Assembly (NCBI RefSeq): GCF_964204645.1
Contig: NC_134032.1
Span: 3,188,916 to 3,252,915, forward strand
Length of the DNA stretch: 64,000 nt
DNA from: Tubulanus polymorphus
Lineage: Eukaryota; Nemertea; Palaeonemertea; Tubulaniformes; Tubulanidae
Direction: 5' to 3'
A program made the translations under genes and the position numbers. The stretch's first letter is position 1. Each line of letters begins with the position of its first letter. Positions 12,401 through 50,520 of the stretch are shown here, piece by piece. The notes beneath the pieces were generated by a model. That model was not told where the DNA came from. It saw only the letters and a list, made by a program, of their open reading frames with translations, and did no database searches.

Positions 12401-14103
12401 TTGCAATCGTTGTTAGAATGTCCCCTTGCTTGTTATCATATCGATCTGATTCGCAAACAAAACTAGTGTGAACCTCCTCGATTTGACACGGGAATCGAAC
12501 CCAGTTCGCCGATCCTCGCGGATTATTCAGTATCATCGCCGTACACGGCATATTGACGTCATTTATCGGTTGTTTTCGAGGAGGAGATATCAATCCATGA
12601 ATAACTTCTGGTATCGTTTCGTTACTAGTAGGTTTATACCACTCCGTGTAGCTCAATGGTTTGCCATCAGTCCACGCGTAATGCCCATCAGTATTCGGCT
12701 GTAAAATACACAGTTAGTTTGTATGCCTCCTTTAGCAATTGAGTTTCCCTTTATGTTCATGATTTCTAGAATCGTGTATCAATAATCGGTAAATTTTGCC
12801 TATTTACTATATGATCGGGGCCGTTCAAATAAGTTACAATTCGCTTAAAATGCCCCTGAATAAAAAAGAAATTCTAGAATGGAATTTACCTGCAATTTCA
12901 ATCCAATCATTATTACGAGCGCTTTCTGCGAATATGCCTCGTCCAGAAGTTTTGTCGCGAATAATCTTTTTATAGCCATCATTTCCTGTTCTGAGTTGAT
13001 ACTGAGTAGATGTCCCGCGTACTCATATCTACAGTGCGATTCAGCCTTCTCCCAATTCTGACGTTCGTGTCTGATGTATTTCACGCAAGAAAGATATCCA
13101 GACTCGATGAATCCAGATTTACAGCGATTACCTTCGCTTTCGGCTGCTTCTTTTAATATAGTATATTGTATTTGGAACGTCGGCACTCGGTCTTTAAGCA
13201 GGAAAGAGACTCCATTGGCGATTAAACTGTGAAATACACTACCGAGTAATGAAAATTCAAGCGTACAGATTTTCGAGTCAAGTGATTGGCGCCGCGTGCT
13301 GCCAATCAACTGAGTGAACAAAATCGCATCTTTATCTCTTGGAGACGTTTTTGAGCACGGCGTTCTTTCTATGTGTTTGATAACGAATCTGTAATACCCC
13401 TGTTCATGTCTAGTTCTTGCTTCCATATCAATAAAGTCGAAGCGATAGATTTGAGAGCTTGTTAAGAAGCCCGCGAACCCCCGGATAGTTCGGCGACTGC
13501 ATGATTCCGCATTTGTCTTTAAACCGTTCGAAAATTGTTCCAGCCCCGAATGTCCTAACCTTTTTCAAACCTAGCTGCTGCACGGTAGTTTCTGATCACT
13601 AGGAAAACATCGATCGATCTGATATTCGTGTTCTGATAGTATATGAATGTTCTTCAAGTGAAGGCGTCGGTTTTCAGGCGTAATTACGACGCAGTGTGAC
13701 GTAATATCGATCTGGCGTTCTCCTTCCTGAAGCATGTATCCCGTACAGTCCGTCGGTTGAAATCCTATATCTTGGTAATATCCGTCTTCCAACAACTGTC
13801 CGTCCCAGTTGTAAGCGTATGCTACTATAGTAACCGGGCCCCCTGATGTAATCAGACTGACGACGTAACGGTCGTACCTGGTCGAAGTGGGAAAATACGG
13901 ACCGTAGCGTCGGGCCGTTAAGTTACCCCCGTCGTATATGTAAAATCCGGCTCGTTCGCAGTCCTCCGATAAAATCAACATGCGTAATTCATCGTCGTTG
14001 ATGTCGACCTCGGATGTGAACATTATTCTATCGACGCGATAAGAAATCGTCGGCTCGTTTCTCGCTCGGAACGTTGTAAAAAGTGGTAAATGATTCAAAG
14101 GCT
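9451..14103 (-). CDS. CUB / C-type lectin / LDLa / LRR / 7TM receptor (GRL101-like), frameshifted
   Basis: This is a very large receptor on the minus strand. Exon A (14103-12890) has an acceptor CGCAG before 14103 and a donor CAG|GTAAAT. It encodes two CUB-like domains (FYIYDGGNLTARRYGPY; CGIMQSPNYPG) and the start of a C-type lectin domain (NWEKAESHCRYEYAGHLL). A 191-base intron (12889-12699) follows. The next exon completes the lectin domain (HYAWTDGKPLSYTEW), then a weaker second one. Roughly six or seven LDLa-type modules follow (such as CDGVMNCRDGSDEIDC), then an LRR N-cap (CPNRCQCQGHSVHC), about seven LRRs, and a rhodopsin-like 7TM region with NLAACDFLM in TM2 and NSSLNPLLYTI in TM7. 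The LDLa-LRR-7TM core matches molluscan GRL101 and relaxin-receptor relatives. The frame shifts by one base near 13590-13605, at the G5 run near 13475 and near 10295 in TM1, with homology continuing across each. It may be a pseudogene or contain assembly errors. No 5' signal-peptide exon is visible. Confidence 0.8.
12699..12889 (-). other. 191-bp phase-0 intron inside the lectin domain
   Basis: On the minus strand the exon ends TTGAAATTGCAG|GTAAAT and the next begins TGTATTTTACAG|CCGAATACTGAT. Joining them gives GLKLQ-PNTDGHYAWTDG, a continuous C-type lectin fold sequence, which supports both splice sites. Confidence 0.8.
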
Positions 14104-28138: not shown

Positions 28139-28201
28139 TAAAATCAATTTTTCAAATTAAGAAGCTTTCATAACTAACATGTGTATTACGTTTATTTACA
28201 G

Positions 28202-29521
28202 ATGGGGAAATATGACAATTGCTGTTTTTGTGAAAACGCAAGAAATTATCCGTTCTCAGAGATAAAAAAACCTCATGTAGATGGAAAATTGATATATTAC
28301 GACATTGTTCGACGCAATGATCCAACATTTGTGAATCACTGCAATACCGCACTAGAAAAAATGGGTAAGCAGCTAACAGTGACGTCGAAGGTCTGCTCAA
28401 ATCATTTCATCGATGGGAGGCCGACCGATATCAACCCTTATCCATACGTTACAAACGAGGAACAAAATATGCCAAAGAAGCGAAAAAATAGAGATTGTTC
28501 ACGTTCGGTGATTAGTAAGACGACGACAACGCAGCCGATATATACGGGTGTTGCGGTAGACGGTTCAGGTGATGGGAACACGATGAGCCTGACATCGTGC
28601 GTCGCATTTGATGAGATGACGCGGGATGTTGACGTAAAGTTCTTTACCGGTTTCGATAATCGGGCAACTTTGAAAACTATTTTTAATTTCTTGTCTGAAA
28701 AAGCTGCCTGTATGGTTTATTGGAAAGGTGGTCAAACAAGAGAAACTCTGTCGAACAATAAGATGGGTAGAAGGAAAAAACTAATCCTCGAAGATGAATA
28801 TTTCATGGTTTTGATGCGTTTACGTCTGGGGTTATTGGTTCGTGATTTATCGCACCGCTTCAACGTATCAATTTCTGCCGTTAGCTCGATATTTTCAACG
28901 TGGATACGTCTAATGAGGCTTGAATTATCATGTATCATTATCTGGCCTTCAAAGAATCAAACCAAAGCTCTTCTACCAGCTGCATTTGTTCAGTTTTATC
29001 CGCATACAAGGTGTATCGTGGACTGCACTGAAATTTCTATTGAAACGCCAACAGCGCTCGACCTACAAGCAGCTACTTGGAGCGACTACAAACATTCTAA
29101 TACGATACAGTTTTTGATTGCCATTACTCCAAATGGATTGATATCGTACGTTTCGCCTTGCTACGGAGGTCGTGCTAGTGATAAATATATATTCACTGAT
29201 TGCGGTATTCTCGACTTCATTGAACCACACGACGAAATAATGGCCGACCGAGGTTTCAAAGTTCAGGAAATTTTAATGTCAAGACACGCAACGTTAGCAA
29301 TCCCCCCGAGCGTTTATCATAATGCACAGATGACCAACGATTCAGTGAAAACTACATCCCGAATTGCAAACGTCCGGATATATGTTGAGCAAGCTATAGG
29401 GCGGATGAAGAATTTCAGAATTTTAAAGAATACGCTGGAGGTCAAAACCGTTCCTTTAATGGATGATGTAGTTATTGTTTGCGCGGCAATATCAAATCTC
29501 AAGCGCGCACTTTGCTCTTAA
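28202..29521 (+). CDS. THAP-like + DDE_Tnp_4 transposase (ISL2EU/Harbinger group)
   Basis: The start ATG (MGKYDNCCFC) lies exactly after a splice acceptor (TTTATTTACAG at 28201), so the upstream in-frame codons are probably intronic. The product is 439 residues. Residues 1-85 form a THAP-like zinc finger: CCFC, then VCSNHF and a proline-rich end (DINPYPY). Around 190-240 is a helix-turn-helix (RLRLGLLVRDLSHRFNVS). The DDE_Tnp_4 catalytic core follows, with first acid CIVDCTEIS, second IMADRGF and third VEQAIGRMKNF. All three acidic residues are present and the frame is fully open, so the element may be recently active. Termini and target-site duplication were not identified. Confidence 0.85.
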   Translation: MGKYDNCCFCENARNYPFSEIKKPHVDGKLIYYDIVRRNDPTFVNHCNTALEKMGKQLTVTSKVCSNHFIDGRPTDINPYPYVTNEEQNMPKKRKNRDCSRSVISKTTTTQPIYTGVAVDGSGDGNTMSLTSCVAFDEMTRDVDVKFFTGFDNRATLKTIFNFLSEKAACMVYWKGGQTRETLSNNKMGRRKKLILEDEYFMVLMRLRLGLLVRDLSHRFNVSISAVSSIFSTWIRLMRLELSCIIIWPSKNQTKALLPAAFVQFYPHTRCIVDCTEISIETPTALDLQAATWSDYKHSNTIQFLIAITPNGLISYVSPCYGGRASDKYIFTDCGILDFIEPHDEIMADRGFKVQEILMSRHATLAIPPSVYHNAQMTNDSVKTTSRIANVRIYVEQAIGRMKNFRILKNTLEVKTVPLMDDVVIVCAAISNLKRALCS

Positions 29522-33195: not shown

Positions 33196-36026
33196 TTAGC
33201 GGTTAGATCGAAACATATTAGCTGGTTGTATGAACTTTTTCTGTTTACCGATCAGGGTAAGGCGAACCTTTTTCCAAAACGTAGAACGGGCTTTATGGTC
33301 TCGCGGGTATTTCATGTAAACGATATTTGAAATGATCGTCCGCAAGGATTCAGGCATGCGCGATTCGGGTATATGATCGATATCGAGCACGAGTATGATG
33401 TTATTGCCCTCCTCGACGCACCGGGTTGCCGCCATGCTTATCACAAATTCCGTCCATTTTTCCTTGACGAATGATTCGGTCAACAAAAACACAACCCACC
33501 GAGACCCGTAAACGGCATCGGCAATGTTCTGTTGTATGTAGCCACCGAGCGTAAAGTCTCGAAACTCGACGCAGAATCTCGAAGCGAAATGTTTGGATTT
33601 TTCTATTTCCGGTATGAAATCCAAATAGACAAATTGGAGGTCTTCCATGCTATGGCTGAGGAATCCGTCAAATTTCAAATCATCAGAAGGGTTTATTGTC
33701 GTTTGACGTAATCGTTTCGGTAGTATTGGATTAACTTTTACCATCCACCAATAGAACATTGACCATCGGTTTTTGGCGACAATTCGTCCAATAGCCATAA
33801 TGATAACAGCGACGCATAAAGTCGAAAGTGAAATGATTATATCTTTGTGGTTGTCACATTCTATCGAATTTAAATGAAAGTCTGCGACAGGAACTCCCGA
33901 TAGCCGTCTGGGTGAAGCGCATACAAGTTTGAACGTGGTTTTATTGTGTATGGCCGCTGCCCAAAAGTCCAAATGGTAATACCTCTTTATTCCATGACTT
34001 GCTAACTCTATAAGCCAGTTTCGCAATTTCCTTAGTTTACAATCGCATTCAAAGGTATTATCGAGAAGGAAAATTGATCTAAAATCTTTTAAATTCATGA
34101 TTTCAGTACGATCGAAGGTTTTTAGTTGATTCGATGCTAAATCCAAAACGCGTAGGTTTATCAGTGGTTTCAACAAACCTGGTTGAATCATTGTCAGTCT
34201 ATTATACTTCAACCGCAAAAACTTTAAGTCAGGAGTTGCTTCAAACGTGGTTCTATCCAAATGTCTAATTCCATTTCTGGAGAGATCGAGTTCTTCTATC
34301 GAGGGAACTCTGCTTAGGATATGATGGAGTACGTGACTAGGACAGCTGCCAATAATTGTTCCACTAAGATGCAAATTAGCTAGTCGATAAAACGTCCTCT
34401 TCCACATAAGGCTTTTACAAGCGATTTTAAGCAGACGTTTGTCTAAGTAATTAACAAACGGTCCGGCAAGGTTGCGTATTTCGATCATACGTATAGATTC
34501 GGGTAACAAATCGAACGACTTAAGGCATAACAAAATGTAAGGACTTGTTAATCTAATGATCAATACACGCAACTTCCGCAGGTTCGTTATGTCCTTTCTC
34601 AAATAGAAATTTCTGTCTAGATAGCCACGCAGCAAATGCCCGGTACAGGGTGATTCAGCGGAAAACCGGCCAGTAACGTGACATAGGATTCTTAATCCTA
34701 TCAGTCTGTTGTTTGTGGTTGCGAACAATGTGCGACTATCGAAGCACGCTAAACCCGGAGAATTGCCTGATAAAAACAAATATAGTTCAGGGTTGGATAT
34801 CATAAATTCTGTGAGATTCAAATTCTGAATGTTATTTTGTGTCAAATCTACTTTACGAAGATTAACTTGCCCTTTGAATTGATACTTTTTAAAATTCGTT
34901 TCACAATAGTTTAACTCCAAGAGTTTCAACCTTTTGAACCTATGAAAAAAGTCTATATCTATTTCGGGTATTCGATTAAACATTAGACTTAAAACCTTCA
35001 AATTCTGCACAGGTAAATATTTCGATATTGACGCAGTCAACGAGATTGCTTCAAACCGCCACACTGCTCGTAAATATAGATATTCTAAGAAAAGGCAATT
35101 TTGCAAAGAATAAAATAGATTATGAATATCCTCGACAGTGTGCTTTGTAGGACATGCTTTTTTGATGAGTCCCGGTAAGTTATGCTGATATAGCAGGAAA
35201 AAATTGTACGCGAAATATTTCAGATGCTTATTTTCCATGAGAGCCTGTTTGTCAATGGAGTATACTGGATTACACGAAACATCGAGCAATATCAGATTCG
35301 GTAGATAATGAAGTGACTTTCGTCCAACCAAAGAACTCAATGCATTTTCTTGTAGCTTTAGCTCCAATAATCTCGGCAATCGACGGGACGGTTTTATGCT
35401 CTTTATCCTATTCTTCGATAAGTAAAGAATATTTATGTTATTCTTTATACGAGGGAACTTTCCGAGTCTTTTGTGTCTGCAGTTGGCGATACCAAACCTG
35501 AAAAATATGTTCAGGTGCTACCGGTATTCATTTTTTTTTCAAAACTGTATTTTATCTCTTCATAAATTGATAGCTATCAATCAATTTGCATTTGTCATAG
35601 CAATACTGGCCGTAAGTTTGACAGTGATCGCCACTAACCGCAGATGTTGCTTTGTTTCAAGCTTTACTTCACTTTTATTCTTGACCGTACCTTTCAATTC
35701 AATATCTAATTCCGCCCTTACTCGGTAACAAATACCAAAATGGTTTGAACTTACCCGCGTCGATAATAACAGCGACACACTGACGGACAACCGAAGTAAA
35801 AGCGTCTGCTGATGATATCGTCGTGTCTTTTAGGACGCCGTTTATCGTTAACTATTCCAGAATACAGCATCCGACTGTCGTCGAGTGACAGGTATTTCTG
35901 ATAATCGAGTGAGTTACTTTCTGAACTCCACGGCGTCCTTTCTATTCCATCGATGATTTCAGATATGATACCACAGTGGCGCAACAGTATCGCAACCACG
36001 AGAACTAGAAGTTTAGATGCGGCCAT
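33196..36026 (-). CDS. transmembrane Toll-like receptor (LRR-TM-TIR)
   Basis: Two exons on the minus strand, 36026-35755 and 35497-33196, joined across a 257-base intron (donor GCGG|GTAAGT, acceptor TTTTTCAG), give an open product of 857 residues. The start is MAASKLLVLVVAILLRHCG, a clear signal peptide. The LRR N-cap spans the splice (CPSVCRCYYRR then ANC). About 15-20 LRRs follow, including ELDLSRNGIRHLDRTTF. A C-terminal LRR cap carries the Cys cluster (FECDCKLRKLRNWL). A TM helix lies around residues 643-665, and a TIR domain from about 695 to the end has box 1 FDGFLSHS, box 2 RDFTLGG and box 3 FW. There is a single LRR cap next to the membrane, as in vertebrate-type (sccTLR) receptors. 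Box 2 lacks the usual proline. It acts at the cell surface or endosome and signals through TIR adaptors if functional. Confidence 0.92.
35498..35754 (-). other. 257-bp intron in the Toll-like receptor
   Basis: It interrupts a glycine codon (GG|G) between CRCYYRR and FGIANCRH, inside the LRR N-terminal cap. Joining the exons restores the cap's cysteine spacing. Confidence 0.85.
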
Positions 36027-36940: not shown

Positions 36941-38054
36941 ACTAACCGATTATATTTGATAATCTAATTATGCTGATCTCATAAAATAAACTTTGTATCT
37001 TAAGACCATCGGTTCAATTCATGGGGTTCAGGTCGTACATGTATTTGGTTATATATGTCTTGCCGTGTCTAAAAGAAAAAGCAAATGATTAATTTTTATT
37101 ATTTTCATTATTTCACTTGTATATGTACATCATATGATCCACAGTTTGTTTTAAACAAATGCTAAGTAATTAATTCTGTTCACTTTTTGTATTTTGTTTT
37201 TGTATTCGACTTGTTTCAACATTAACCACACGAGCTGTATAATGCAAGGGATTTGAAGTAAAATGGCAGCTAGCAACTGTGAAATGGCTCGTCAGCGTAA
37301 GTAGAAGGCACTCGATACGTAAGTCAATAATTTAGGTTCATTGCTCGCTACATAAAATACGTATTGAAATGTAATATAGAAATTGGTAATTGATTGTGTG
37401 CGGGCCGTTTAAACACATTAAATATTTAAGTGTGAGGTGAAACACCGTACGAATTGAGTTTTCCCAGTCACGCTGCCTATGACCAGAAAACAGCAAACAC
37501 AGCGCAATAAATTAAACTCTTTTGAATAACGGGTTTCAGTTGACAGGTTCTTTCTGAGTTAGATTTGAACAGGAAGTGTTTTGAATACGAAGGAAATATC
37601 TTCATTGTTCATTGAAGAAAATATCTAATTCACCATACTGCATTGTAATATTTATCTTCATCTCTTATGCGTTTCCCAAAGTTTTTGACATCATTAGAAT
37701 TCTGAATGGAGTATTTATATTTTGCGCCAATAAAATGAACCAAATACATCCTTTCAATTTAATTGGATGCGTTTTGCATTTAGTATTTTCCGCCCGATTA
37801 CGATCAAATTGACATTATTCCGCGCGTATAGATGTAAACACGAGTTCAGAAAATGCCAGGCAAATTCAGTTCTAGAAACTTGTAAAATGTTTAATCACGA
37901 GTGACTAAAATAACCTTTTTTAAAGATTCGGTTGTAATAGATACAAAACCTCTAGATTGCTGTTTGGCTATTAAAAGACATACTTTGTAGTCGGTCTCGA
38001 TAAACACTTCAAGGGACACAGCGAACGATCCCTTTCCCCCACAGCGAACGCTTA
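36941..38054. other. intergenic, no gene seen
   Basis: No supported coding region. 37255-37300 resembles 1735-1780, an unassigned interspersed repeat. Confidence 0.4.
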
Positions 38055-38379
38055 CTTCACATGTGTTCAGTGCTTCACCTGAGACATTTTCAATTGAAAA
38101 TTAACTACAAACACCAGATATTAGACATTTTATCAGCACACTTTCAGAAACTGATCGTCCACACTTCACATGTGTTCAGTGCTTCACCTGAGACATTTTC
38201 AATTGAAAATGAACTACAAACACCAGATATTAGACATTTCATCAGCACACTTTCAGAAACTGATCGTCCACACTTCACATGTGTTCAGTGCTTCACCTGA
38301 GACATTTTCAATTGAAAATGAACTACAAACACCAGATATTAGACATTTCATCAGCACACTTTCAAAAACTGATCGTCCA
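38055..38379 (+). repeat. 109-bp tandem repeat, three copies
   Basis: Units start at CTTCACATGTGTTCAGTGC at 38055, 38164 and 38273 and differ at only a few bases. Since 109 is not divisible by three, the frame rotates from copy to copy, so the overlapping open frames are not a repeat protein. Confidence 0.95.
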
Positions 38380-38619
38380 CTCATTGCCGTGTTCCGTGTC
38401 CGGGACTTCACAAACTGAGGTATTATTTTAAGAATTGAATGCTTACTAACGACCACCTTTAAAAGCACAAAAATGCTGAACATTACAGTATTGGAATGCA
38501 GTTACGTTACGATATCGTTTAGCTGGGTTAGCTGCAGGTTACGGATTAGATAACGTCAGTACCCAGTCTATCCCCATCCCCACTCAGGTAGAGATACTCA
38601 TTTCATTGAAATCATGTCT

Positions 38620-39113
38620 ACTGTCTGTCACACATGCTCTTCGTGCGACGTTTTGGTCCGTAATTTCGTTAATAATCGGTTGATCTGTAAATATTATGCA
38701 TCAATTTGTTCAGTAAGGAATTTGCATTCAGAAATAAATCATGAACTGGCATAAATTTGTTTGTGTTTTCTTCTATCAGCGATAGTTTTCCTAGCATACG
38801 CTCGCGTAATGCTGAAAAAACGGCTTTTATGGCCCGTCACGTGGCGCCACCTACTGTATTTTGATATGCTTATGAGCAGGTGATGACGTTTCCGAGCGTT
38901 CGCGGAGCGGATTTTTCAGCATAACGCGAGAGTATGCTGAGTAAACTATCGCTCATAAATGAAAACAAAAACAACTTTAGTAAAAATTGTTGTTTATTTC
39001 TGAATGCAAATTCCGCACTGAACAAATTGATGCGTCATAAAGGTAGATAAACCGATTATTAACGAAATTACGGACCAAAACGTCGCACGGAGAGTAGGTG
39101 TGACAGACAGTAG
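38620..39113. mobile_element. fold-back element with about 220-bp arms
   Basis: CTACTGTCTGTCACACATGC at the left end is mirrored by GTGTGACAGACAGTAG at the right end. The arms stay paired through CGACGTTTTGGTCCGTAATT, AATTTGCATTCAGAAATAAA, AGCGATAGTTT and GCTGAAAAA. The short centre (38830-38930) contains CACGTGGCGCCACCTACTG. There is no coding capacity. Confidence 0.85.
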
Positions 39114-39354
39114 TTACGATCGCAATATACTCTCAATTTCTAGCGCCATCTTACGATACTTTGGATAAACTACACGTATACGGTATGTGACGAGAGAGTT
39201 TGTAGATAAGCCGTGTAGTAGTAACGAGTCGGGAAGCTCAGTCGCCTGAAGCAGAGCCCGTGCCAAGGTTGCTACCCAGATATTTGGGAAAAGTACTCTT
39301 ACAAATACATGACGTAGGCTGTATCGAATAGAACATTCCTTATTCACGATCCAA

Positions 39355-39417
39355 CACCCCCCCCCCCCCTCCCCCACACACATCCCACACCCCCACACCC
39401 CACAGCCCCCCTAAAAA
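39355..39417. repeat. C-rich low-complexity tract
   Basis: A run of about 20 bases that are nearly all C is followed by CACACA and CCCCACACC pieces. Assembly length here is likely to be unreliable. Confidence 0.9.
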
Positions 39418-41164
39418 GTAACTCAAATGCTAGACACGGGCCTATGATGAAGCTATACATTAGCATCACCAGATCGTGTATACTCCGGACAAACCAGTTT
39501 CACCAGATCGTATAACATTCGAATAAACCAGTTACGTTCCAAGTTCGTACGGGTTTAAGGCGAGGTTTTTTACTGTACTGGCAATTCTATTTACTCACAC
39601 GCCATCTATTGATCATCACGGTTACTACGTATTAGAAACGACCGGCAAAATATTTCCAGGGTTCAAGCAAACATCGGACACCGTGAACGGTTCTAAGTGA
39701 ACCTTGATATTTCATTCGCATTTTGGGAGGTATTGATGTTACCTCTAAAAGTACCTCGGAAAAGATGTTTGGCTCTGAATCGATTCAACAACAAAAAAAA
39801 CAGTAAAAAATTCGTTTTTCTAAATATCTTCCGACCAAAGACGAGCTTCGTACGAAGAGTTTTATACTGGCTTGTATCGTCACTGACCACTACTGACCAA
39901 TTCATACTACTCGTATATGATACTTTGGGCGTGACGAAGAGATGGACAATGTCGCCTAATTCGCGACTGGCCTACTGACCTAATAAAGAAGTTTCCAGTT
40001 TCTAGGCGCCAATTTGTGGCGGTTCCTCGAGGTCCCCATTGTTGCGATAATTTGCGCTCATTTTTTAAACATAAGTTTAGATTGAATATAAAAATAGCTC
40101 TGCAGTCCCTTTCTTGATTAACTGAATTCATAGACCATTTTAAAGGTAATGAAATGCAGATATTTGCCGGTGATTCTTGAATTTTTTAAATGCAACAATT
40201 AAGAGCAGTGACGATGTGAAACCAAGGACCAAGATATTTCAACTGCGCGTCAAAAAATTGCGATAATTATTGATTTTAAAATATCTAAGTGGTTATTAAA
40301 GCTAGATTTCCCATTTTTACTGAGGTTAAAGAACGTTATTTGCTTTAAGGGCCTACGTTGACATTTTTTGAATATCTCTCTTGACGACTGATCTCTAACC
40401 GCTAGAGTTTGAGATTACGCGCCAAAGGGGTCTCCCACTGCGCACCGCCATTTCACTGAACATTGAGAGATTTGCGAAAAGCATGGGCGTGTGTCCGATA
40501 GCGATACAGCTGACACTCAGATTCTCTCTGCGCATTTGTTATACTGTATAAACAATTTAATGAATGGGACATGTTATTTAAAAAAAACCACCATCATTTA
40601 GGCTATATGTTTGGCTATATTGATGGAAGTGTTTCATTCTCTGTGATGCATCCTTAACCACAAGTTCTATTAACCACTTCAAATAACGGATACATTTTTA
40701 AAACATGTACAAGGTATGGAATGATCTAAATCTATTTTGGAATAAATATGTGACTAAATTTCAATTATTTTCTATAATTTCCTATTCATTATATACATCT
40801 GGGCCGAGTTTGAAATATGATAGAATTTCCATTCAGTTGCCATGGTAGTTAGTAACCTGTCTGTGGTTTAGTTTCACGATCGGATATTGGTTGGTATAAG
40901 CCCATCCGATTATAAAAAGCTTACCACCAACGATTAGGTAACTAACTATTGCCAAGGAAACGTAAAAATTGGATCCCGATGGAGGCCCGGCTCCCGGCTT
41001 CTAAAATTGATAGTTAGGTTTGTATCAACATCTGTGCCAATTTTCGTGAATTTGTCCACCCGGTAACAATTAAAAGACAAACGCTAAGCCATCCTACTAG
41101 CGGTACCACCGAGAGGATCGACCCGCGATACTTTGGAGAGTTACCGGCGATCCCCGAACCTGGA
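39418..41164. other. intergenic, no gene seen
   Basis: No coding or RNA gene supported. The last part approaches the presumed promoter of the propeller-caspase gene. Confidence 0.4.
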
Positions 41165-41260
41165 CGGAGCGCTCCTGATGTCGGACGTTTGTGAAGCTAT
41201 CGTTTGGTGGCGCCCTCTCTTGTGAAGCGCCATCTTGAGTCTGTGTCGAATTAAAACCGG
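41165..41260. repeat. repeat shared (inverted) with 5455-5535
   Basis: GAAGCTATCGTTTGGTGGCG and GCGCCATCTTGAGTCTGTGT match in reverse complement the stretch around 5455-5535 (CGCCACCAAACGATAGCTTC; ACACAGATTTAAGATGGC). This copy lies about 300 bases before the caspase start codon. Confidence 0.7.
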
Positions 41261-41565
41261 CTCGTCAAACCCGATCAAACACACTCAACGGCAGCCGCTC
41301 TACGATCCAGTACTCGCCCTTGTGCAGCGGTGACACTGACGGTATTTTATCGCGAATTTTAGGAACCAGTTAATCGCAGTGAATACAGCTGAGTGAACTG
41401 TTTGTTAGCCGTTTAATATTGTGATTCCGGAAGAAGATCGTTTTTAATATAACAACCAACGGAGGAGATTTCACCTCGGTCGGTGAGAAGAGAGGAGATC
41501 ACATCAGTCATCATCAGTTAATTGTTTGGTTTGTTTTAAACTTGTGTTGGGGTTAAACTTGTAAC

Positions 41566-44500
41566 ATGGAAGTTAAAAACGATTCATTGACGCTCAATAA
41601 ACGGGTAGATACAGACTTCAGACCCCACCTGATGACGTCAATACCCGATGAACACGAGGGTGAACAGTCACGTGTTATATGTGCGCAGTATCGCTCCACT
41701 GATTATATATATAGTGTGAATGATAATGATATACAGAGATACATAGGAATTATGGTAAGATACGAGGACTCGATACTGATAGTAACGGGTTTCTGTTTGT
41801 GGTCGTGAGGAAAAACAGTGAATTCATCCTGAGAAAATATAAAAATCAGAGAAAACTCTTCGAAGAAAATATCACTGATATCCTGTCTGGAGGCTGTGGA
41901 TCCTTCGTAATCCGTGATCACAATATCTATATACAGTCATTGAGAGACGTTCATGTTTTACGTTAATTAGAAAACCCTACTGTAAACAGTTTGATCTTTA
42001 GAAACCAAGTGAAGGAGTATCAGCTCCCGGATGGAGATTACGAATATATCAACTGTTTCGATGTCGATTCAAAGGGACGTATGTTTCTCTACTGTTCGCA
42101 TACACATAGATTACTGTATCTAACACCAGAAGCAGAACTGATGGGTTTTATCATTATGAAATATTGCGGACTAACATTTGATCCACTTACAGGATCCCTG
42201 TGTGTTATTGATGATGATCATGTATTACTAACGGTATACTCTGATACTAATAACAGAGGATCTGTTATCAGTATCAGATATAATAATGTGGGGTTTATAG
42301 ATCACCGTATAATACTGAACTCTACAGACACTAGGACATGTGACATACATCACGTGTGTAACAGTAACGCTGTAGTTATCCATCACTGGGATAACAGTAA
42401 TAAACAGCGATCACTGAGATTCTACAATATAAACACTGTGGAACCAGCTCCAGATGTCAGAGGGAATGTGTGTGAATCGGGTGGAATAGATCAATACTAT
42501 ATGAATCGTGAACACAGAGGCCTCGCTCTTATTATATCAAATAAGGAATTTGACAACGGTGAAACTAGGATTGGCACCGAGTTTGATGTGGAGTCTTTAC
42601 GCGGGGTGTTTAGTGATTTAGGCTTCGAAGTTGTCGTCTGTAAGAATTTGACTGCGAAGGAAATGAAATCGAAAATACGTGAAGGCAAGTATAAGAGTTT
42701 TATTATTTCAACTTACTAGAGCGGGACCACAATTAGGCTAGATCAGTACCTAGTAGGTCAGACGCGTAGAGTCGGACCCCGGTCGAAAATGGCTCCTAGA
42801 ATGAACGAGAGGTTTCCAATTGGACCCATCAGTTTGTCAACATGAATTGGGGTTTGGCTAATACACAGCACTGCGGTGTATTAGTCCACCCGTATCCACC
42901 CTGACTATTACTCCTCAATCCACCTGTATCCACCCTGACTATTACTCCTCAATCCACCTGTATCCACCCTGACTATTACTCCTCAAGCCACCTGTATCCA
43001 CCCTAACTATAACACCTCAATCCACCTGTATCCACCCTGACTATTACTCCTCAATCCACCTGTATCCACCCTGACTATTACTCCTCAATCCACCAGTATC
43101 CACCCTGACTATTCCTCCTGAATACACCCGTATCCACCCTGACTATTACTCCTCAATCCACCTGTATCCACCCTAACTATAAAACCTCAATCCACCTGTA
43201 TCCACCCTGACTAAAACTCCTCAATCCACCTGTATCCACCCTGACTATTACTCCTCAATCCACCTGTATCCACCCTGACTATTACTCCTCAATCCACCTG
43301 TATCCACCCTGACTATTACTCCTCAATCCACCAGTATCCACCCTGACTATTCCTCCTCAATACACCCGTATCCACCCTGACTATTACTCCTCAATCCACC
43401 TGTATCCTCCCTAACTATAAAACCTCAATCCACCTGTATCCACCCTGACAAACTCTTCAATCCACCTGTATACACCCTGACTATTACTCCTCAAGCCACC
43501 TGTATCCACCCTAACTATAACACCTCAATCCACCTGTATCCACCCTGACTATTACTTCCCAATCCACCTGTATCCACCTTAACTATTTCACCTCAATCCA
43601 CCTGTATCCACCCTGACTATTACTCCTCCAGCCATCTGCTTCCACCCTTACTATAACACCTCAATCTACCTGTATCCACCCTGACTATTACTCCTCCATC
43701 CACCTGTATCCACCCTGACTATTACTCCTCAAGCCATCTGTATCCACCCTAACCATAACACCTCAATCCACCTGTATCCACCCTGACTATTACTCCTCAA
43801 TCCACCTGTATCCACCTTAACTATTACACTTCAATCCACCTGTATCCACCCTGACTATTACTCCTCAATCCACCTGTATCCACCCTGACTATTACTCCTC
43901 AATCCACCTGTATCCACCCTGACTATTACTCCTCAATCCACCTGTATCCACCTTAACTATTACACCTCAATCCACCTGTATCCACCCTGACTATTACTCC
44001 TCCAGCCATCTGCTTCCACCCTTACTAGTATTACTTGGAAGAGTAATGATGGACAGGGTGGATAAAGTGGCTCGTAGTATCCATGAATCGCTAGTTTCAA
44101 AGGATTTATGGATATGATTCTAATGCGAAATTGGAATTAACCGATTTAAACACTGTACAATTTTTCAGCTGCCGCAAATCCTATACATGGTGAATCGGCT
44201 GCCTTTGTTTGTGTAATACTTAGTCATGGAAAAAAGGGTGACAAAGTTATTGGAACTGATGATGAAGCTGTTCGTGTTGAAGAACTAGTCAAACCATTCA
44301 AAGGTGATGCGTGTGAAGCTTTAGCTGGAAAACCAAAACCTACTATTCTTTATTCAGGTAAACAGTATTCAGGAAGTTACGATGGCTCGCTACGATTCCG
44401 TGTGTCCTCGATAACTCCAAAAATGAATTTCAGCTAAATTCCCAAAAGTCCCCGAAAACTTTTTGAATTTTGAGAAATTGACAATTCGAAAATTTTAAGC

Positions 44501-45348
44501 CCACTTGAGACTTAAATCTCAGTTTGTCATTGCAATCACTTAGGGTGCACAGTATTATATTTGCATCGTGTATCTTTTCTTGAGTGTATTTTTGATATTC
44601 ATGAAATGCTATCAAAGGTTGTTTTGTGTAAGTTGTGGAGAAGTCAATAAATATGAACTAATCAATTCTCTCAGGTTCGGGGGATCATATCTTACTCTCC
44701 ACTGTCCCCTTGCGATACCCAAACCTAAATTATTCAAGAGCACCATACTTTGATTTTTGGTAATAGTTTAATTGACAGGCTTGTCGGGGACAGCTTCGAG
44801 AGCAAGGTGTATTATTCACTGATTCTGAGCCAATTGATGCTAATGGAGGTTTGAGAATTCCGAATGAAGCTGATGTCCTGATCGCCTACGCAACTGTTCC
44901 AGGTAAGAGTTATGTATCTGCTTTAGATCGGTAAAAACCTATTGAAACCGCGGGTTAGAAATTTTTATATTAATAGTAAAAATCTTTGGTATCCGGGTCT
45001 ATTTTTTACCACATTGTCAAAGCCTTAAAAAATACCAATAACATCATTTCCAATATGGAAATCTCTAAATAGATTTATGTAGGCCTATACCCTCACCCCC
45101 TATTTCATTTTTGAACCACAATTGTTTCGTTATTTTCCATAGGTTACGTTTCCTGGAGGGATGCAGAGGAAGGATCATGGTTTATACAAACCCTGTGTAA
45201 AGTTTTGAAGGAACATTATCGTTCGTTGGACCTTGTAAGAATGTTGACACGAGTCCAGCGTAAAGTTGCGGATGAATTCAAAACAAAAAAGGAACACAAA
45301 CAAATGCCGTGTTACCACATTAAGGAAAGATTTGTATTTTGCTCGTAA
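41566..45348 (+). CDS. beta-propeller-like / caspase fusion protein (four exons, lesions present)
   Basis: Exons: 41566-42684, 44169-44357, 44779-44902 and 45143-45348. The ATG at 41566 (MEVKNDSLTLNKRV) opens about 300 residues of repeated beta strands of propeller type (IRGLDTDSNGFLFVV, INCFDVDSKGRMFLY, GLTFDPLTGSLCVIDDDH). The caspase domain follows without a break from IDQYYMNREHRGLALIIS. Key parts are TRIGTEFDVESLR (pocket Arg), CVILSHGKKGDK (catalytic His), FFIQ|ACRGQ (catalytic Cys), YVSWRDAEEGSWFIQTLC (S2-S4 pocket) and a p10 end QMPCYHIKERFVFCS. This is a cysteine protease cutting after Asp. The sequence shows a one-base loss near 41735-41750, an in-frame TAA at 41964-41966 and an extra A in the A4 run 44335-44338 just before the active site. 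All catalytic residues survive, so the locus is a young pseudogene or contains sequence errors. Confidence 0.8.
42685..44168 (+). other. probable GC-AG intron of the caspase gene, holding the minisatellite
   Basis: The exon ends GTGAAG|GCAAGT, which is the GC-donor consensus, and the next exon follows TTTTTCAG. Joining gives KIREAAANPIHGESAAFVCVI, a continuous caspase p20 sequence in phase. Reading through the donor instead meets a stop after ten codons. A less likely GT donor lies a few bases upstream (AATAC|GTGAAG). Confidence 0.65.
42885..44026. repeat. 34-bp minisatellite, about 33 copies
   Basis: The unit is TCCACCTGTATCCACCCTGA followed by CTATTACTCCTCAA. Variants (CTAACTATAACACC; AGCCATCTGCTTCC) recur in blocks, giving a partial higher-order pattern. 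It fills most of the caspase first intron. Confidence 0.97.
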
Positions 45349-45349
45349 A

Positions 45350-45890
45350 TCTTAATCGAGATGCTACTTAAATTCAGGATTGAATTGCATTAACAGGCCT
45401 GGTAGTGTTTGGGAATTAATGGGGGTTATGACGAACTACCTCGAGATCCTAAATTTCCGCATTTGAAACTGGATTTGTCGAAAAGGAATACAGTTTTGGG
45501 CTTGCCTTATCCACACCCAACGTTAAGGAAAATGAAGAATGAAACCTTGATTCCTTGAAAATTTCTAAACCAAAAACTTTTTCAAGGTCCTTGAATTTGA
45601 GCAAAATGCCTGAAAGTCATTGAAAACTCCAAAAAACGGCCTCGGCCTCTGACGCACACCATCTTTCGCCAGCTCATTATAGTTAGTATGAATGATACAA
45701 ACTGTGTGCTGGGATTCTGTTGAACCTCTTGGACAAAAGAATCACGTTCTTGGTACTTTCACTTCTTTTTTGGAAAAATTGAAAAATCACCCGTGAAAAT
45801 CTTGGGAATTTTCAACTGATTTAGGCCTAACTGTGGGAACCAAGCAATCAGACTACATTATATTCGACATGATATGAAATGAAAAAGTGA
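45350..45890. other. 3' flank of the caspase gene, no gene seen
   Basis: Presumed 3' UTR and flank. No clear AATAAA occurs within the first few hundred bases. Confidence 0.35.
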
Positions 45891-45897
45891 GTGATAT

Positions 45898-46123
45898 TTA
45901 GGCTAAGAAAAATGGATACCTTGTTTCTCATTTTCTGCTGAGCTTAAAAAGTTGACCCCGCCCTTCCAACTATCTACCCTGTACATTTAATTTAAATTGT
46001 AATCATGTCGATCAAGTTAACAATAAAACAGACTCGGCAATATTGAAATGATCTGATAAAAAATATTGCAGTTTTCAAAAGCGACCCGGCCGATTAGGAG
46101 AAACGAGGTATTGTTTTGCCTAA
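45898..46123. mobile_element. complete MITE of the TTAGGCTAA family
   Basis: TTAGGCTAAGAAAAATGGATACCTTGTTTCTC on the left faces GAGAAACGAGGTATTGTTTTGCCTAA on the right. About 225 bases, non-coding. Relatives are at 18561 and 50527. Confidence 0.75.
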
Positions 46124-46309
46124 GCATATATTTTTTTTTTCTAGTTATTAATATAAGTATTATACTGAAGAGTTATATCTGTACATAAAATATCAAAATA
46201 CGGTGCTACCATGATTTACGGTGCTATACTCACGATTTATTCCGATCAGATAGTGGGTTTTTATCTTATTAACATTATTAAATGTGTAGAATTTAGACGC
46301 CGCTCACGA

Positions 46310-46400
46310 GCAGCAAGACGCGCCCAGGAAAGGGAGCTGGGGAGGATTTGAACCCATTTATCTGACGAAGCTACTATCGACTAGTGCTGCCGCCCTCGTC
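46310..46400 (-). ncRNA. weak tRNA-like (SINE-head) segment
   Basis: The minus strand contains GGGTTCAAATCCTCC, a B-box-like stretch, about 25 bases after GTAGCTTCGTC, which resembles an A box. No complete cloverleaf can be drawn. Confidence 0.25.
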
Positions 46401-46720
46401 ACTTTTCCAAAAAGGACTGATGAGAAACAATGGTATTTCTTTGCGTGGCTTAAAGCTATGATGAAATTGTATGTATATCCGTAGTGTTTATAACCTATTA
46501 AGAGTTTAAAGACATGTTTCTATTTTCGATATTATGATAATCTCGATTTTAATATCTTTATTCGTATCGATAAAACAGATTAAAAGATATAGATAGAATG
46601 AAAGCAAAACACATTTCATTTTCGAGTAATATATGATCATATATATATATTGATTAAACTGTCATATTTAAAACTATATTTGTTTGTTCACTCATTCAAT
46701 GGAAGTATAGTTCAAACCCT

Positions 46721-47030
46721 GTGGACTGGCGGCCCTAATACAATTAACACTGAGGACTGATGACCCGAATACCATCTATAACACTGAGGACTGATGACCC
46801 GAATACCATCTATAACACTGAGGACTGGCGGCCCTAATACAATTAACACTGAGGACTGATGACCCGATTACAATCTATAACACTGAGGACTGGTGACCGG
46901 AATACAATCTATAACACTGAGGACTGGTGACCGGAATACAATCTATAACACTGAGGACTGATGGCCCGAATACAATCTATAACACTGAGGACTGGTGACC
47001 CTAATACAATCTATAACACTGAGGACTGAT
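46721..47030. repeat. second 34-bp minisatellite, about nine copies
   Basis: The unit is CTATAACACTGAGGACTGGT followed by GACCGGAATACAAT, with variants ATGACCCGAATACC and CGGCCCTAATAC. Confidence 0.95.
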
Positions 47031-47199
47031 ATTAATCTTCGTCTTACTATTTGCTGAGCGCAATTTTTCCATGATACAAAATTAGAAATGAAAACCTTTC
47101 TCTAACAGATCACGTTTTAATTCCTTTCGTAGAACTGTAAAGTTTCATTTGTACTCTAATGGTAAAATGCATCATCTATACTTGTTTTTAGGACTAGGC

Positions 47200-47640
47200 A
47201 GATTCTCTCCTCGTTGGTGCAAATACAACTCGAATTCATCGTCTGCAGTTAGTCCGAAACAACGCAGCTCACCTCATCATAAAAACAGAAAAATGTGACG
47301 TTCATGTTACTGCAGCTTTGGTTACGCTTCATTGGCTTCCAATTTCCGCCCGTGTTCATTTCAAAATTCTTCTTATAAGTGTTTGCATGGTTTTACTTTT
47401 GTTTATCTTATGTTATAGCATGCAGTTTATAAGCCTTAATTACGGGCTCTTCGTTCTAGTCAGGATAGCACCCGTCTAATTAATTACCTCCTGTCTCAAA
47501 CCGTTCTTTTGGTGACCGTGATTTTAATATCTGTGTCCCACGCTTGTAAATGCTCTTCCGGCAAACATACAACGAAGGTCCCACGGTTGAATCTTTTAAA
47601 TTTCGTGTTAAAACGTACCATTTTTAGAAATATTAATTTT
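47200..47640 (+). mobile_element. LINE 3' end (C-terminus of reverse transcriptase ORF)
   Basis: The plus strand reads RIHRLQLVRNNAAHLI, then VTLHWLPISARVHFKILL, then near the end TVESFKFRVKTYHF and a stop. This is the conserved C-terminal region of non-LTR retrotransposon polyproteins (QNxAARL ... LHWLPIxxRIxFKIL). Frames are broken. The 5' part is missing, as in typical 5'-truncated insertions. Confidence 0.75.
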
Positions 47641-48745
47641 TTTATTTTTTTATTGTAAAATTTTTAAGTTCACTGCAAATGTTTTTGTAATATAAAGCAT
47701 TTAGAATATGGTTTTAGTTGAGCGCTATATACGAAATTGATAAGAAATGAAATCACCACTCTCGAAACAAAGTCTGAAGTTCCTCATTGTGCTTTAATGT
47801 CAAATTTAACAAATTAATTGAACCTTGTTCTATGGGTCCGATAAATGTCTTAAAAAGGCAGTAAAAAACGGCGGATAACTAACTTCAAACACATTATAAA
47901 CGGACAAGTAGCTACTATCGGTGAGCTTTGATAAACGTACGACATCTAAAACTGCAACTTAACAGTCTGTAGGTCTATTTATCTGATAACGCGCTCAGAT
48001 TTGTTTGACAATACCCTTACAAAATAAAAATATCGGTCAACCGAATAACTAAGAAGCCTGTGAACAGAAAAACCTCTACACGGGGAATCAAAGCCGGTTT
48101 TGGTATTGATTGGGGCCGCAAAACTCAACTCAAATGAGCCCGTTTTTTGTCCTACAAATAACAGAGGGGAACTTACCGCTGTTATCATCGCCCTCTACAG
48201 GCAACAAAACTCGGGTTAACGCGAAATACGTGATACTCGGTCTTACTTAGTGGATCCACTCATGGAAAACCGTGACCTTTGGAAACTTCTGCATAAGCTG
48301 TCGCAAAACATCACCTTCAACCTTCAACTTTCAACATGTCAGGGGACACTAAGGGGTATTAGGGAATGAGATAGTGGACCAACTCGCCTAACTTGGGGCG
48401 TCCTTAAATCTATAAGTTACTTGTCTGTAAGTGCTCAAGTCACTTTTCCCATTTGGTTTTGCCTGCGAATAGTCGTTGCGTCATAGTTGATGTCCTATAC
48501 AGACCTCGTTTAGACTTGTATATAGTGTAAATATCTTAGTCACGAGTTTGGGAATGCTGTTGTTTGTGAGAGGTTTAGACGAAAAGACCCTCCACCAATT
48601 TCTTGCACTTGCTGCATGTATCGGGTCCCCTCAAACTTGCGGCGGTACTGTATGTACTGTATCAGGTAACACCACGAGTTTGTTTGTCGTATAGGCGCTT
48701 AATCTGGCTGACCGGTTCAAAGTTTGTGGCAAGCGAGTATTACGT
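47641..48745. other. intergenic, no gene seen
   Basis: No supported coding region or structured repeat. Confidence 0.35.
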
Positions 48746-48754
48746 TATAGAACG

Positions 48755-48975
48755 ATAACCACACTCAAACGTGGCCCGAACGGATAATAAGATAAAATCC
48801 CACTATTTACAGATTAAAAAGAATTTAAAAACCAGAATTGACTTCACCGTCACCTGACGATGATCTCTAGGGTGAGATCGAAACGTCGTGTCTTTTATAT
48901 ATTTTTGATTGAATAAATAAATTCTGGTTTTTAAATTATTTTAATCTGTAAATAGTGGGATTTTATCTTATTATC
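48755..48975. repeat. fold-back repeat, same family as 868-1030
   Basis: The left arm GGATAATAAGATAAAATCCC is mirrored at the right by GGGATTTTATCTTATTATC, about 60 paired bases in total. The centre carries CACCTGACGATGATCTCTAG then GGTGAGATCGAAACGTCGTG, as in each arm of the palindrome at 950-1030. Confidence 0.75.
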
Positions 48976-50520
48976 TGAGTATTACGTTAGTTCGCGTTTA
49001 CCCCGCTGTCGTTATTTGGAGGGGCAGCACCAGACAGTCAAGATCTGAGGCGGATGTGAGAACGAGTTTCATAGTGAATCACTGTTCACAACATTTAACA
49101 TGAATTCTACCTAGATCAGAGCGAAATTAAATAAAGTGAATTAATTAACACACGAGATCCTGATATTAGAGTTAATTTAAATACATTTGAATGATTGAAT
49201 CGTGGCTCGAAAGTAAGGACCGGCGACCAGTCTAATTCTATAGAGACCGGTAACCAGTCTAGAACTTCATCGGATGGGTCAGGCAACCAGTCGGAAATGG
49301 ATGGCGCCGATTTGTTTTGTTTCTGTGTCGCTGCGCATAAAATCATGATTTTCAGATAAAAACTGCCGACTAAAGACCGCTCGCTTCGGCATGAGACAAG
49401 GAACAAGTCGAAGCAACAGCGACATGTAAAAACATCAGCATTTTCCCCGTCAATTTTGCAAGAAAGACGCTTTTTATCCACTATTTTAATGTCCAGTGTA
49501 GTCTGTGTTCAAATCGCCACGTGTACATATAGACTATTCATAGAACTGTCAGAGCCGCTGACTCCTGTTGAATCCGCTAGGTGTCACTAGTAATATTGCG
49601 TCATCGTTTATATAGTGATGATAAAATAAACGATAGATTTTTATTTTCTAGACTAATTGCTGGTCTCTGTTCTAGCCTCTGTAAAAAATTCAGATAGCTC
49701 CAATCTTACCGAAATAAAACTAGTCAGAACAGGGTGGGCTCGAAAAACGATATGCTTTTCACATTTTTGAATTATCTTCGGTAGTTTTCGAGATATAGCG
49801 ATCTGAAGTTTGAAAATTTCGGCGAAAAGTGTCGACTTCACGTTTCAATACAATGATCTTAAGAAGGCAATATTTCATAGAAACAAACTTCAATATCTCC
49901 TGAACTCGTGGAGATAGATTAAAAATGTAAAGATCATTACACTCGTAGCACTCGCGGGCTAAGTTGAGGTTAGATCGCAAATTGATTTAAATTACGATGA
50001 TAAATATCATTTTATCTGTTATCAATTTCATAAAGAGAATAGCTGAAAATCAAACTTGGCCTCTTAAATTCAAAATAGCATTTTCATGACATTAATCAGT
50101 TTAGAAACATAAACCTGGCAATAATAATAGTACTAATAATAATAACTAAATGAAAATGCATTTGATTTGTTTTAAGCTTAATTTCAACAATAATTTATAC
50201 TCACTTCAAAGTTGCTACTTTTGGAAAGTTCCCCTCGTGAGGCTCACTGTCCCATCACGCGCCTCTAGTTTTGCCTCAATTCATCCCATTAGACGCCTCT
50301 TTCTGCAGCAGCCGTTTTACTGACATTCCCATTGCGGAAAATTACAAAATAAAATCATGCTGTCTTCAGTATTTAGATTTTAAGATCCTAAACCTTCTGA
50401 TTGCCGATATGTGTCTTCCATTAATACAGGGTCTTTAGGTAGTAATTCATCCCGGTCAATTGCCTTTCTTATTAAAACAAGATTCCCCTTACTGTCGAAT
50501 GAAATTACATGAATCGGTTT
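48976..50520. other. intergenic, no gene seen
   Basis: A minus-strand 121-codon frame at 49116-49481 has no family resemblance and no splice context; I do not call it. Confidence 0.35.

What the first reader, a model, noticed from the sequence alone, without database searches (positions are those of the whole stretch)
41566..45348. Beta-propeller-like domain fused to a caspase
Seen: one exon reads from repeated propeller-type strands (LDTDSNGFLFVV, FDVDSKGRMFLY, LTFDPLTGSLCVI) straight into a caspase start (YYMNREHRGLALIIS), and later exons supply SHG, QACRG and SWR..GSWFIQ. Known: metazoan caspases usually carry CARD, DED or short prodomains; propellers (WD40) occur in the activator Apaf-1, not in the protease. 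Inference: a caspase that senses or is scaffolded by its own propeller would be a single-chain variant of a sensor-plus-protease design. I know of no described family with this order.
Basis: partly seen in the sequence, partly recalled or inferred. Interest (0 to 1): 0.87.

Follow-up and report, generated by a model that had tools for sequence, protein, structure and literature searches.

The report
Propeller-caspase fusion family, broken copy here
An animal genome carries a small family of genes that join a ring-shaped recognition domain directly to a cell-death protease; the copy in this window is broken, but sister copies are open from end to end and the predicted recognition face seems to change faster than the opposite face.

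Summary
The fusion is real, but the window copy is not a working gene. Window 41566-45348 holds four caspase exons, the first beginning with about 290 residues of another domain. This copy has four lesions: a 1-bp deletion, a nonsense codon, +4 bp and -5 bp. The genome holds seven more fusion loci. Four of the eight are open from ATG to stop through the same four exons; two of those keep both SHG and QACRG. Sequence profiles name nothing in the N-terminal domain. AlphaFold2 gives a confident 24-strand all-beta domain; Foldseek ranks NHL six-bladed propellers first. The propeller is a cassette shared with a larger family: 46 near-full-length places, 39 not caspase-linked. The caspase part resembles caspase-7/3 end to end, linker Asp kept. 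Amino-acid change is higher in predicted top-face than bottom loops (pN/pS 2.02 against 0.90; p 0.006 for pN). Best reading: a single-chain recognition-caspase, close in design to amphioxus LRR- and TNFR-caspases but with an NHL-like propeller. No expression data; ligand and activity are inferred.

The parts
41566..42684 (+). exon 1 of the fusion gene: propeller, linker and first 61 residues of the caspase; broken in this copy
   Evidence: open in sister loci L009-L013 and L018; blastn of the window to L011 91%, L010 88%, L013 88%, L009 87%, L012 85% (main piece), L018 68%
41578..42439 (+). NHL-like six-bladed propeller cassette
   Evidence: in three sister copies DNA homology to four non-caspase loci covers only codons about 5-294; 84-90% identical to the three on C8, 74-75% to the one on C12; AF2 and Foldseek on sister L010
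41750..41751 (+). lesion 1: 1-bp deletion between these bases, frameshift
   Evidence: blastn against L011 and L010
41964..41966 (+). lesion 2: in-frame TAA
   Evidence: sister copy L011 reads TTA
42440..42500 (+). low-confidence linker (EPAPDVRGNVCESGGIDQYY) between propeller and caspase
   Evidence: pLDDT under 50 for residues 294-319 of the L010 model
42501..42684 (+). caspase start (MNREHRGLALIIS...), Pfam C14 positions 1-57
42685..44168 (+). intron 1, GC-AG type (GAAG|GCAAGTAT ... cag|CTGCC), largely a 34-bp minisatellite at 42885-44027
   Evidence: with the same GC donor four sister loci read through in frame
44169..44357 (+). exon 2 with catalytic-His motif SHG (about 44222-44230); lesion 3 (+4 bp) within about 44338-44346
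44779..44902 (+). exon 3 with catalytic-Cys motif (Q)ACRG and linker Asp-Ser (LFTDS)
45143..45348 (+). exon 4, small-subunit region (SWR..GSWFIQ); lesion 4 (-5 bp near 45311) shifts the C-terminus
39880..45742 (+). segment shared, in blocks, with sister copies (from 39880 in L009, L011, L012, L013; from about 41185 in L010; to about 45740 in L010, L012, L013 and about 47030 in L009)
   Evidence: blastn of window 38001-49000

Best explanation
The window holds a broken copy of a recently amplified gene family in which an NHL-like six-bladed beta-propeller was placed, by capture or exchange of a propeller cassette from a larger propeller family of the same genome, in front of a caspase-7/3-type protease. 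In the intact sister genes the propeller most likely acts as the recognition part: its top face binds a fast-changing partner (a pathogen molecule or a polymorphic host protein). Binding concentrates or positions the attached procaspase dimer, which is then cut after the conserved linker Asp (VVAD|S), by itself or by another caspase, and kills the cell or cuts the bound target. Shown by computation: fusion in one exon, open frames at four loci, predicted fold, shared cassette, kept catalytic motifs in two copies, more amino-acid change in the loops of one predicted face. Inferred: expression, ligand, activation route, cell death.
For: Same order at eight loci (window, L009-L014 on C8, L018 on C11). 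Four spliced frames of 551-608 codons open end to end (L010, L012, L013, L018). L012 and L013 keep SHG and QACRG. L013 caspase matches caspase-7 4jj8_A over residues 1-236, E 1.7e-54, with VVADS/IQADS roughly opposite in the alignment. Propeller: residues 6-293, pLDDT mostly about 90, 24 strands; best fold hits Brat NHL E 3.8e-10 and Thin 2.0e-9, then Lin41, TRIM71, TRIM2/3 within the first 25 rows. Of 119 tblastn rows 46 span at least 240 of 314 residues, 7 in caspase genes and 39 not (counted by hand). Rate: pooled dN/dS of the propeller in five C8 caspase genes 1.47 (bootstrap 1.06-2.22) against 0.83 (0.54-1.36) in the caspase part, where two of the five copies give only 61 codons. Top-face loops pN/pS 2.02, bottom 0.90, strands 1.41; permutation p 0.0058 for the top-bottom pN difference in caspase genes; 1.64, 0.84 and 1.23, p 0.0008, in seven non-caspase copies plus L010. 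BC loops against all other loops p 0.0014. Stop-free after 0.04 neutral substitutions per site: 3-6% of simulations.
Against: Four of eight copies are broken or truncated (window, L009, L011, L014). L010 has SHV for SHG; L018 has KVPYCGRTG where QACRG is expected. Pooled dN/dS of 12 non-caspase propellers is 0.94 (0.73-1.25) and of all 17 C8 propellers together 1.03 (0.83-1.31), so values above one do not hold for every set. Against L018 the pairwise values are 0.63-0.72. Synonymous change is also raised in BC loops (0.258). At 0.02 neutral substitutions per site 18-25% of frames stay stop-free, and L012 and L013 are near copies (propeller dS 0.015), so the open frames are not four independent witnesses. 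Pairs of paralogues are not independent and gene conversion may distort the rates. Executioner caspases are classically activated by other caspases, not by ligand-induced proximity (established knowledge). No RNA or protein data; species not named; no second animal genome could be searched. The AF2 alignment has only 15 rows, all of one genome.
Confidence: 0.5

Rival explanations
1. Targeting, not sensing: the propeller is a substrate- or site-recruiting arm of an executioner caspase that is switched on by ordinary initiator caspases; the fast-changing face follows a substrate (possibly a pathogen protein).
For: Caspase part is caspase-7/3-like with the canonical activation Asp region; NHL propellers of Brat, Thin and TRIM71, the nearest folds, bind RNA or protein partners (established knowledge; RNA-bound entries are among the hits).
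Against: Nothing in the sequence separates targeting from sensing.
Confidence: 0.2
2. Integrated decoy: the propeller copies a domain of an abundant coiled-coil/propeller family that pathogens attack, and the caspase is set off when the decoy is touched, as with integrated domains of plant NLRs (analogy recalled).
For: The cassette is 84-90% identical in DNA to the propeller of three C8 non-caspase genes, while no row of the parent's first exon (44 rows) lies within 10 kb of a fusion gene. The same loops change more in both groups.
Against: No pathogen effector or target is known; the decoy step is pure analogy.
Confidence: 0.12
3. A young, largely non-functional duplication: the fusion arose by chance rearrangement and its copies are decaying under relaxed constraint.
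For: Four of eight copies broken; two more with altered catalytic motifs; dN/dS near 1 in the caspase part with wide intervals; at 0.02 neutral changes per site 18-25% of frames would still be stop-free, and two of the open copies are near copies of each other.
Against: Neutral change of 0.04 per site leaves 3-6% of such frames stop-free, indels not counted; amino-acid change is uneven between predicted faces; the divergent C11 copy L018 (exon 1 48% identical to L010) is still open.
Confidence: 0.2
4. Assembly or sequencing error: the window copy is intact in the animal and the lesions are artefacts.
For: No reads could be checked.
Against: Four different lesions in one copy, while four sister copies in the same assembly are open throughout; one lesion is a substitution.
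Confidence: 0.07

Closest known systems
Amphioxus LRRs-caspase and TNFR-caspase hybrid proteins (PMC2575513, passages read)
   Same: recognition domain joined directly to a caspase with a QACXG active site, proposed there as a direct link from recognition to apoptosis
   Different: LRR or TNFR instead of an NHL-like propeller; a chordate; here several amplified copies with uneven change between propeller faces
Oyster caspases with two dsRNA-binding domains (Cg3C-like A and B, PMC7836458, passages read)
   Same: caspase-3-like protease with a prodomain that is not a death fold
   Different: prodomain type
Bacterial metacaspases with WD40 repeats (PMC3501461, passages read)
   Same: caspase-fold protease and WD40 repeats in one chain (10.9%, 73 sequences)
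   Different: metacaspase, one widespread form with NACHT between; WD40, not NHL-like; prokaryotic
Fungal het-d/het-e family (PMC1805685, abstract and section list read)
   Same: expanded family whose propeller interaction surface is under diversifying selection and sets recognition specificity
   Different: WD repeats exchanged by concerted evolution; no protease (recalled); NACHT-type protein (recalled)
TRIM-NHL proteins (Brat, TRIM2/3/71)
   Same: nearest fold of the propeller; the non-caspase parent genes also end in coiled coil plus propeller
   Different: no Pfam NHL match; no RING or B-box match in the parent exons scanned
Apaf-1
   Same: propeller linked to caspase control (established knowledge)
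   Different: separate chain, CARD-NB-ARC-WD40; none of these matched here
TRADD-N / WD40-propeller expansions of marine invertebrates (PMC8195603, passages read)
   Same: lineage-specific expansions with C-terminal, highly variable propellers
   Different: WD40; the parent family here gives no Pfam match, so kinship is only a lead

Membership tests
metazoan caspase (C14) | p20 and p10 in order, end-to-end homology | tested here: met
   Pfam C14 on four exons; L013 against caspase-7, query residues 1-236 of 238, E 1.7e-54
metazoan caspase (C14) | catalytic His (SHG) and Cys (QACRG) in one open frame | tested here: inconclusive
   met in L012 and L013; SHV in L010; Cys motif altered in L018; both motifs present in the window but the frame is broken
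executioner caspase 3/7 type | inter-subunit Asp cleavage site and short prodomain | tested here: inconclusive
   an Asp-Ser stretch (VVADS) lies opposite caspase-7's IQADS region; the prodomain is not short, it is a propeller of about 290 residues
initiator caspase | CARD or DED prodomain | tested here: not met
   no such match at E up to 10 in the N-terminal part of six sister copies (three unrelated sub-threshold rows); in L009-L013 a stop lies four codons before the ATG; no profile search further upstream was made
NHL-type beta-propeller | six blades of four strands, NHL fold | tested here: met
   24 strands, pLDDT mostly about 90; PDB ranks 1-4 are NHL domains, probability 1.00, TM-score by target 0.60-0.70; a prediction, not a solved structure
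NHL repeat family by sequence (Pfam) | profile match to NHL | tested here: not met
   none at E up to 10 or 5; one sub-threshold row named beta-propeller repeat (SBBP, E 0.13) in L029; no propeller among PDB profile hits
WD40 propeller / Apaf-1 | WD40 profile, NB-ARC | tested here: not met
   no match in the pieces scanned
amphioxus-type receptor-caspase hybrid | receptor domain plus active-site-bearing caspase in one expressed transcript | tested here: inconclusive
   single exon and open frames shown; expression not testable here
diversifying recognition receptor | excess of amino-acid change on the ligand face | tested here: inconclusive
   top 2.02 against bottom 0.90, p 0.0058 for the pN difference; but the ligand face is taken from canonical propeller strand order, no ligand is known, and pooled omega for 12 non-caspase copies is 0.94

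The most novel reading that the evidence does not exclude
An invertebrate germline repertoire of single-chain immune proteases: a diversifying NHL-like propeller whose top face tracks a fast-evolving enemy or partner molecule, joined without adaptor, STAND ATPase or death fold to a caspase-7/3-type executioner, and supplied with new binding faces by exchange with a pool of about 40 non-caspase propeller genes in the same genome.
Probability: 0.35. Interest if true: 0.82.

Novelty: new variant of a known kind. Interest (0 to 1): 0.62.

Why it matters
Animal caspases are usually switched on through death-fold adaptors or by other caspases. A recognition domain that sits on an executioner-type caspase itself, in several copies and with uneven change between its faces, would be an adaptor-free route from recognition to proteolysis, and would make it testable whether an executioner caspase can be gated by its own ligand-binding domain. 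It also suggests that animals, like fungi with WD40 propellers, may use a propeller family as raw material for non-self recognition.

Tried and rejected
Sequence-only recognition of the N-terminal domain: Pfam, PDB profile and self-comparison for repeats (best off-diagonal E 0.028, Prob 1.8) did not name it; only the predicted fold did. One or two fusion events: the careful propeller tree puts L018 apart and L012/L013 apart from L009/L010/L011/window, and none of 200 bootstrap trees had the seven fusion rows as one clade, yet the AU test does not reject one clade (p 0.169; C8 copies alone p 0.379), so left open; gene conversion could give the same picture. First thought that L014 was an ancestral propeller-free caspase whose splice acceptor had been read through; dropped, because its upstream DNA aligns with the end of the L013 propeller and is decayed. 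L017, tandem neighbour of L018, shows no propeller but shares 24 of 28 bases on one side and the linker on the other: empty site or deletion, undecided. Other effector fusions: the 3-kb middle of a 2257-aa propeller ORF on C11 (L060) is repeat sequence by eye, not scanned with Pfam; most other long ORFs were not opened beyond. Viral relatives: none confirmed in one scan of viral contigs with A2 (11 pattern matches, 0 confirmed). Species: a COX1 search of the genome gave nothing, so the species is not identified; that the animal may be a lophotrochozoan is a recalled guess. Parent-family N-terminus as TRADD-N/NCOA6-like: a resemblance from recall only, no Pfam match to the joined exons. An NHL control search of the genome did not complete. 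A fold search of the second model did not complete.
Full report
What is in the window. Pfam's caspase profile matches four successive pieces: 41967-42716, 44150-44434, 44776-44931 and 45115-45345, in order over positions 1-225 of 233. Comparison with sister copies gives the exons 41566-42684, 44169-44357, 44779-44902 and 45143-45348. Intron 1 has a GC donor (GAAG|GCAAGTAT) and contains a 34-bp minisatellite. With this GC donor, loci L010, L012, L013 and L018 give open spliced frames, which supports it.

The window copy is broken. Relative to its nearest sister L011 (91% DNA identity over 1417 columns), exon 1 lacks one base at 41750/41751, which puts the ATG out of frame with the propeller, and reads TAA for TTA at 41964. 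Exon 2 has 4 extra bases against sister loci (200 against 196 aligned bases in L012, L013 and L014), and exon 4 lacks 5 bases against L009.

The family is real. The genome search with the caspase profile gave 44 rows, 46 of 46 candidates scored. Around these, six loci besides the window carry the same N-terminal domain and the caspase start in one open exon: L009-L013 on C8 and the divergent L018 on C11. An eighth, L014, shows a decayed propeller end upstream of its caspase start. State of the eight: L012 and L013 are open with SHG and QACRG; L010 is open with SHV; L018 is open with an altered Cys motif; L009 has lost the start of exon 2 with SHG; L011 has no exons 2-4 in the 5.7 kb fetched beyond exon 1; L014 shows exon 2 but no exons 3-4 in the stretch fetched, and its propeller is decayed; the window copy has four lesions. 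Simulated neutral change of 0.04 per site leaves 3-6% of the four open frames free of stops, 0.02 per site 18-25%, indels not counted; L012 and L013 are near copies and do not count as two witnesses.

The N-terminal domain. It has no Pfam match worth the name in six sister copies (three sub-threshold rows, E 0.021-0.22) and no meaningful PDB profile match. AlphaFold2 on L010's exon-1 product with a 15-row alignment (A3) gives pLDDT mostly about 90 for residues 6-293, 24 strands, mean 80.3, pTM 0.72; residues 294-319 are a low-confidence linker. Foldseek against the PDB ranks NHL six-bladed propellers first: Brat 3.8e-10, Thin 2.0e-9, then Lin41 (rank 7), TRIM71 (15), TRIM3 (21) and TRIM2 (24); DDB1 (rank 5), Drp35 (from rank 9) and WD40 chains such as Vps11 (rank 20) are also there, as expected for propellers. 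TM-scores by query length are about 0.5 at best; the query includes the linker and caspase start. A second model, of a non-caspase gene (L047), shows the same all-beta domain at residues 126-419 (mean pLDDT 73.0); its own fold search did not complete.

Where the propeller comes from. tblastn with the L010 domain gives 119 rows, 118 of 118 candidates scored. I count 46 rows that span at least 240 of 314 residues: 7 are the fusion genes and 39 are elsewhere, on C2, C3, C6, C7, C8, C11, C12 and C40; compared by eye, none of the 44 caspase rows lies within 10 kb of those 39. Of the 24 non-fusion loci opened, 21 have ORFs of 501-667 aa (the others 421, and two of 793-794 cut by the locus end). In the printed ones the usual order is a short conserved piece (VKLEWREAPPGVEIP...), coiled-coil-like repeats and the propeller at the C-terminus; L029 instead shows two propellers around a coil. 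An upstream exon of this parent family has 44 rows in the genome, none within 10 kb of a fusion gene. In three fusion copies tested against four non-caspase loci, DNA homology covers only codons about 5-294, which is the propeller and nothing else. The neighbour L017 on C11 has a caspase without propeller but with matching short flanks. The propeller thus behaves as a cassette gained or lost as a unit. A single origin of the fusion is neither shown nor rejected (0 of 200 bootstrap trees show one clade, AU p 0.169).

The protease. The spliced L013 caspase part aligns end to end with caspase-7 (E 1.7e-54; caspase-7 and caspase-3 fill most of the 60 rows shown of 224), with SHG and QACRG matched and VVADS opposite caspase-7's IQADS region. 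This fits an executioner type; activity is not shown.

Rates of change. Pairwise Nei-Gojobori values in the propeller among the five C8 fusion copies L009-L013 are 1.15-3.41, in pairs with the window piece 0.90-1.41, and against L018 0.63-0.72. Pooled: propeller of five C8 fusion genes 1.47 (bootstrap 1.06-2.22); their caspase part 0.83 (0.54-1.36; two of five copies give only 61 codons); 12 non-caspase genes: propeller 0.94 (0.73-1.25), coiled coil 0.54 (0.36-0.82), N-terminal piece 0.77 (0.59-1.02); all 17 C8 propellers together 1.03 (0.83-1.31). With strands taken from the model, loops on the predicted top face (DA and BC, 67 positions) have pN/pS 2.02, the bottom (AB and CD, 53 positions) 0.90 and strands 1.41 in the five fusion genes, permutation p 0.0058 for the top-bottom pN difference; in seven non-caspase copies plus L010 1.64, 0.84 and 1.23, p 0.0008. 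BC loops alone exceed other loops (p 0.0014, 23 loops), though synonymous change is raised there too. The assignment of DA and BC loops to one face is established propeller topology, not measured here. Sequences are related and pairs are counted many times, so these p-values are guides.

How it most likely works. Shown by computation: one-exon fusion, four open frames, predicted NHL-like propeller, caspase-7/3-like protease with its processing Asp region, a cassette shared with a larger family, uneven change between predicted faces. Inferred: that the top face recognises a fast-changing molecule, and that this gathers or places the protease so that processing at VVAD|S follows. Rivals are targeting of an ordinary executioner, an integrated decoy, decay of a chance fusion, and assembly error of the window copy.

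What is known. The bivalve caspase survey lists CARD, DED, DD and double-DSRM prodomains among 46 caspases, 24 of them short without a named prodomain, and its main text has no occurrence of propeller or WD40 (PMC7836458, passages). Amphioxus has LRRs-caspase and TNFR-caspase hybrids, with cDNA support reported for TNFR-caspase (PMC2575513, passages). Of the bacterial metacaspases surveyed 10.9% (73) carry WD40 (PMC3501461, passages). Fungal het-d/het-e show diversifying selection on the propeller's interaction surface (PMC1805685, abstract and section list). Three further papers were only searched for terms: PMC11121540 has no occurrence of propeller, WD40 or NHL, PMC3196919 none of propeller or WD40, PMC2246300 none of propeller, and WD40 in the four passages shown only in Apaf-1 homologs. 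PMC8195603 describes WD40-propeller expansions with TRADD-N and DED in marine invertebrates (passages; 12 of 34 places shown). In nine searches I saw no animal caspase with a propeller prodomain; the lists were capped, I saw titles and abstract starts, and most subscription journals are not in that library, so this is not proof of absence. I rate it a new variant of a known kind, the animal recognition-domain caspase hybrid.

Noticed in passing
window 33199-35517 (-): Toll-like receptor ORF in one exon: LRR_8 5.9e-28 and a TIR domain (TIR_2 3.1e-7).
   Followed up: partly
window 9454-12713 (-): LDL-receptor-A and LRR repeats (10215-12713) overlapping, in another frame, a 7tm_1 receptor ORF (9454-10341), like a split leucine-rich GPCR of the GRL101 type (name recalled).
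   Followed up: partly
window 28178-29518 (+): DDE_Tnp_4 transposase (1.8e-44) with its helix-turn-helix domain in one 447-aa open frame, possibly a recent element.
   Followed up: no
window 42885-44027 and 46715-47030: Two different minisatellites with 34-bp units; the first fills most of intron 1 of the caspase gene and is shared with sister copies.
   Followed up: partly
C8 about 214-225 kb and 460-762 kb; C12 about 1.3-2.06 Mb and 6.2-6.3 Mb: Clusters of a coiled-coil plus NHL-like-propeller gene family without a convincing Pfam match; coil length varies widely (ERLNRFCTEQQLE repeats, L051 against L047), and L029 holds two propellers in one frame.
   Followed up: partly
L012:3060-4307: In-frame duplication of the propeller-caspase linker (TVEPAPDVRGNVC... 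twice) in one of the two fusion genes that keep both catalytic motifs.
   Followed up: no
L023:2313-4940 (-): 876-aa open frame with immunoglobulin-like text by eye and a C14 match at C4:2606625-2607077, perhaps a paracaspase (MALT1-like, recalled).
   Followed up: no
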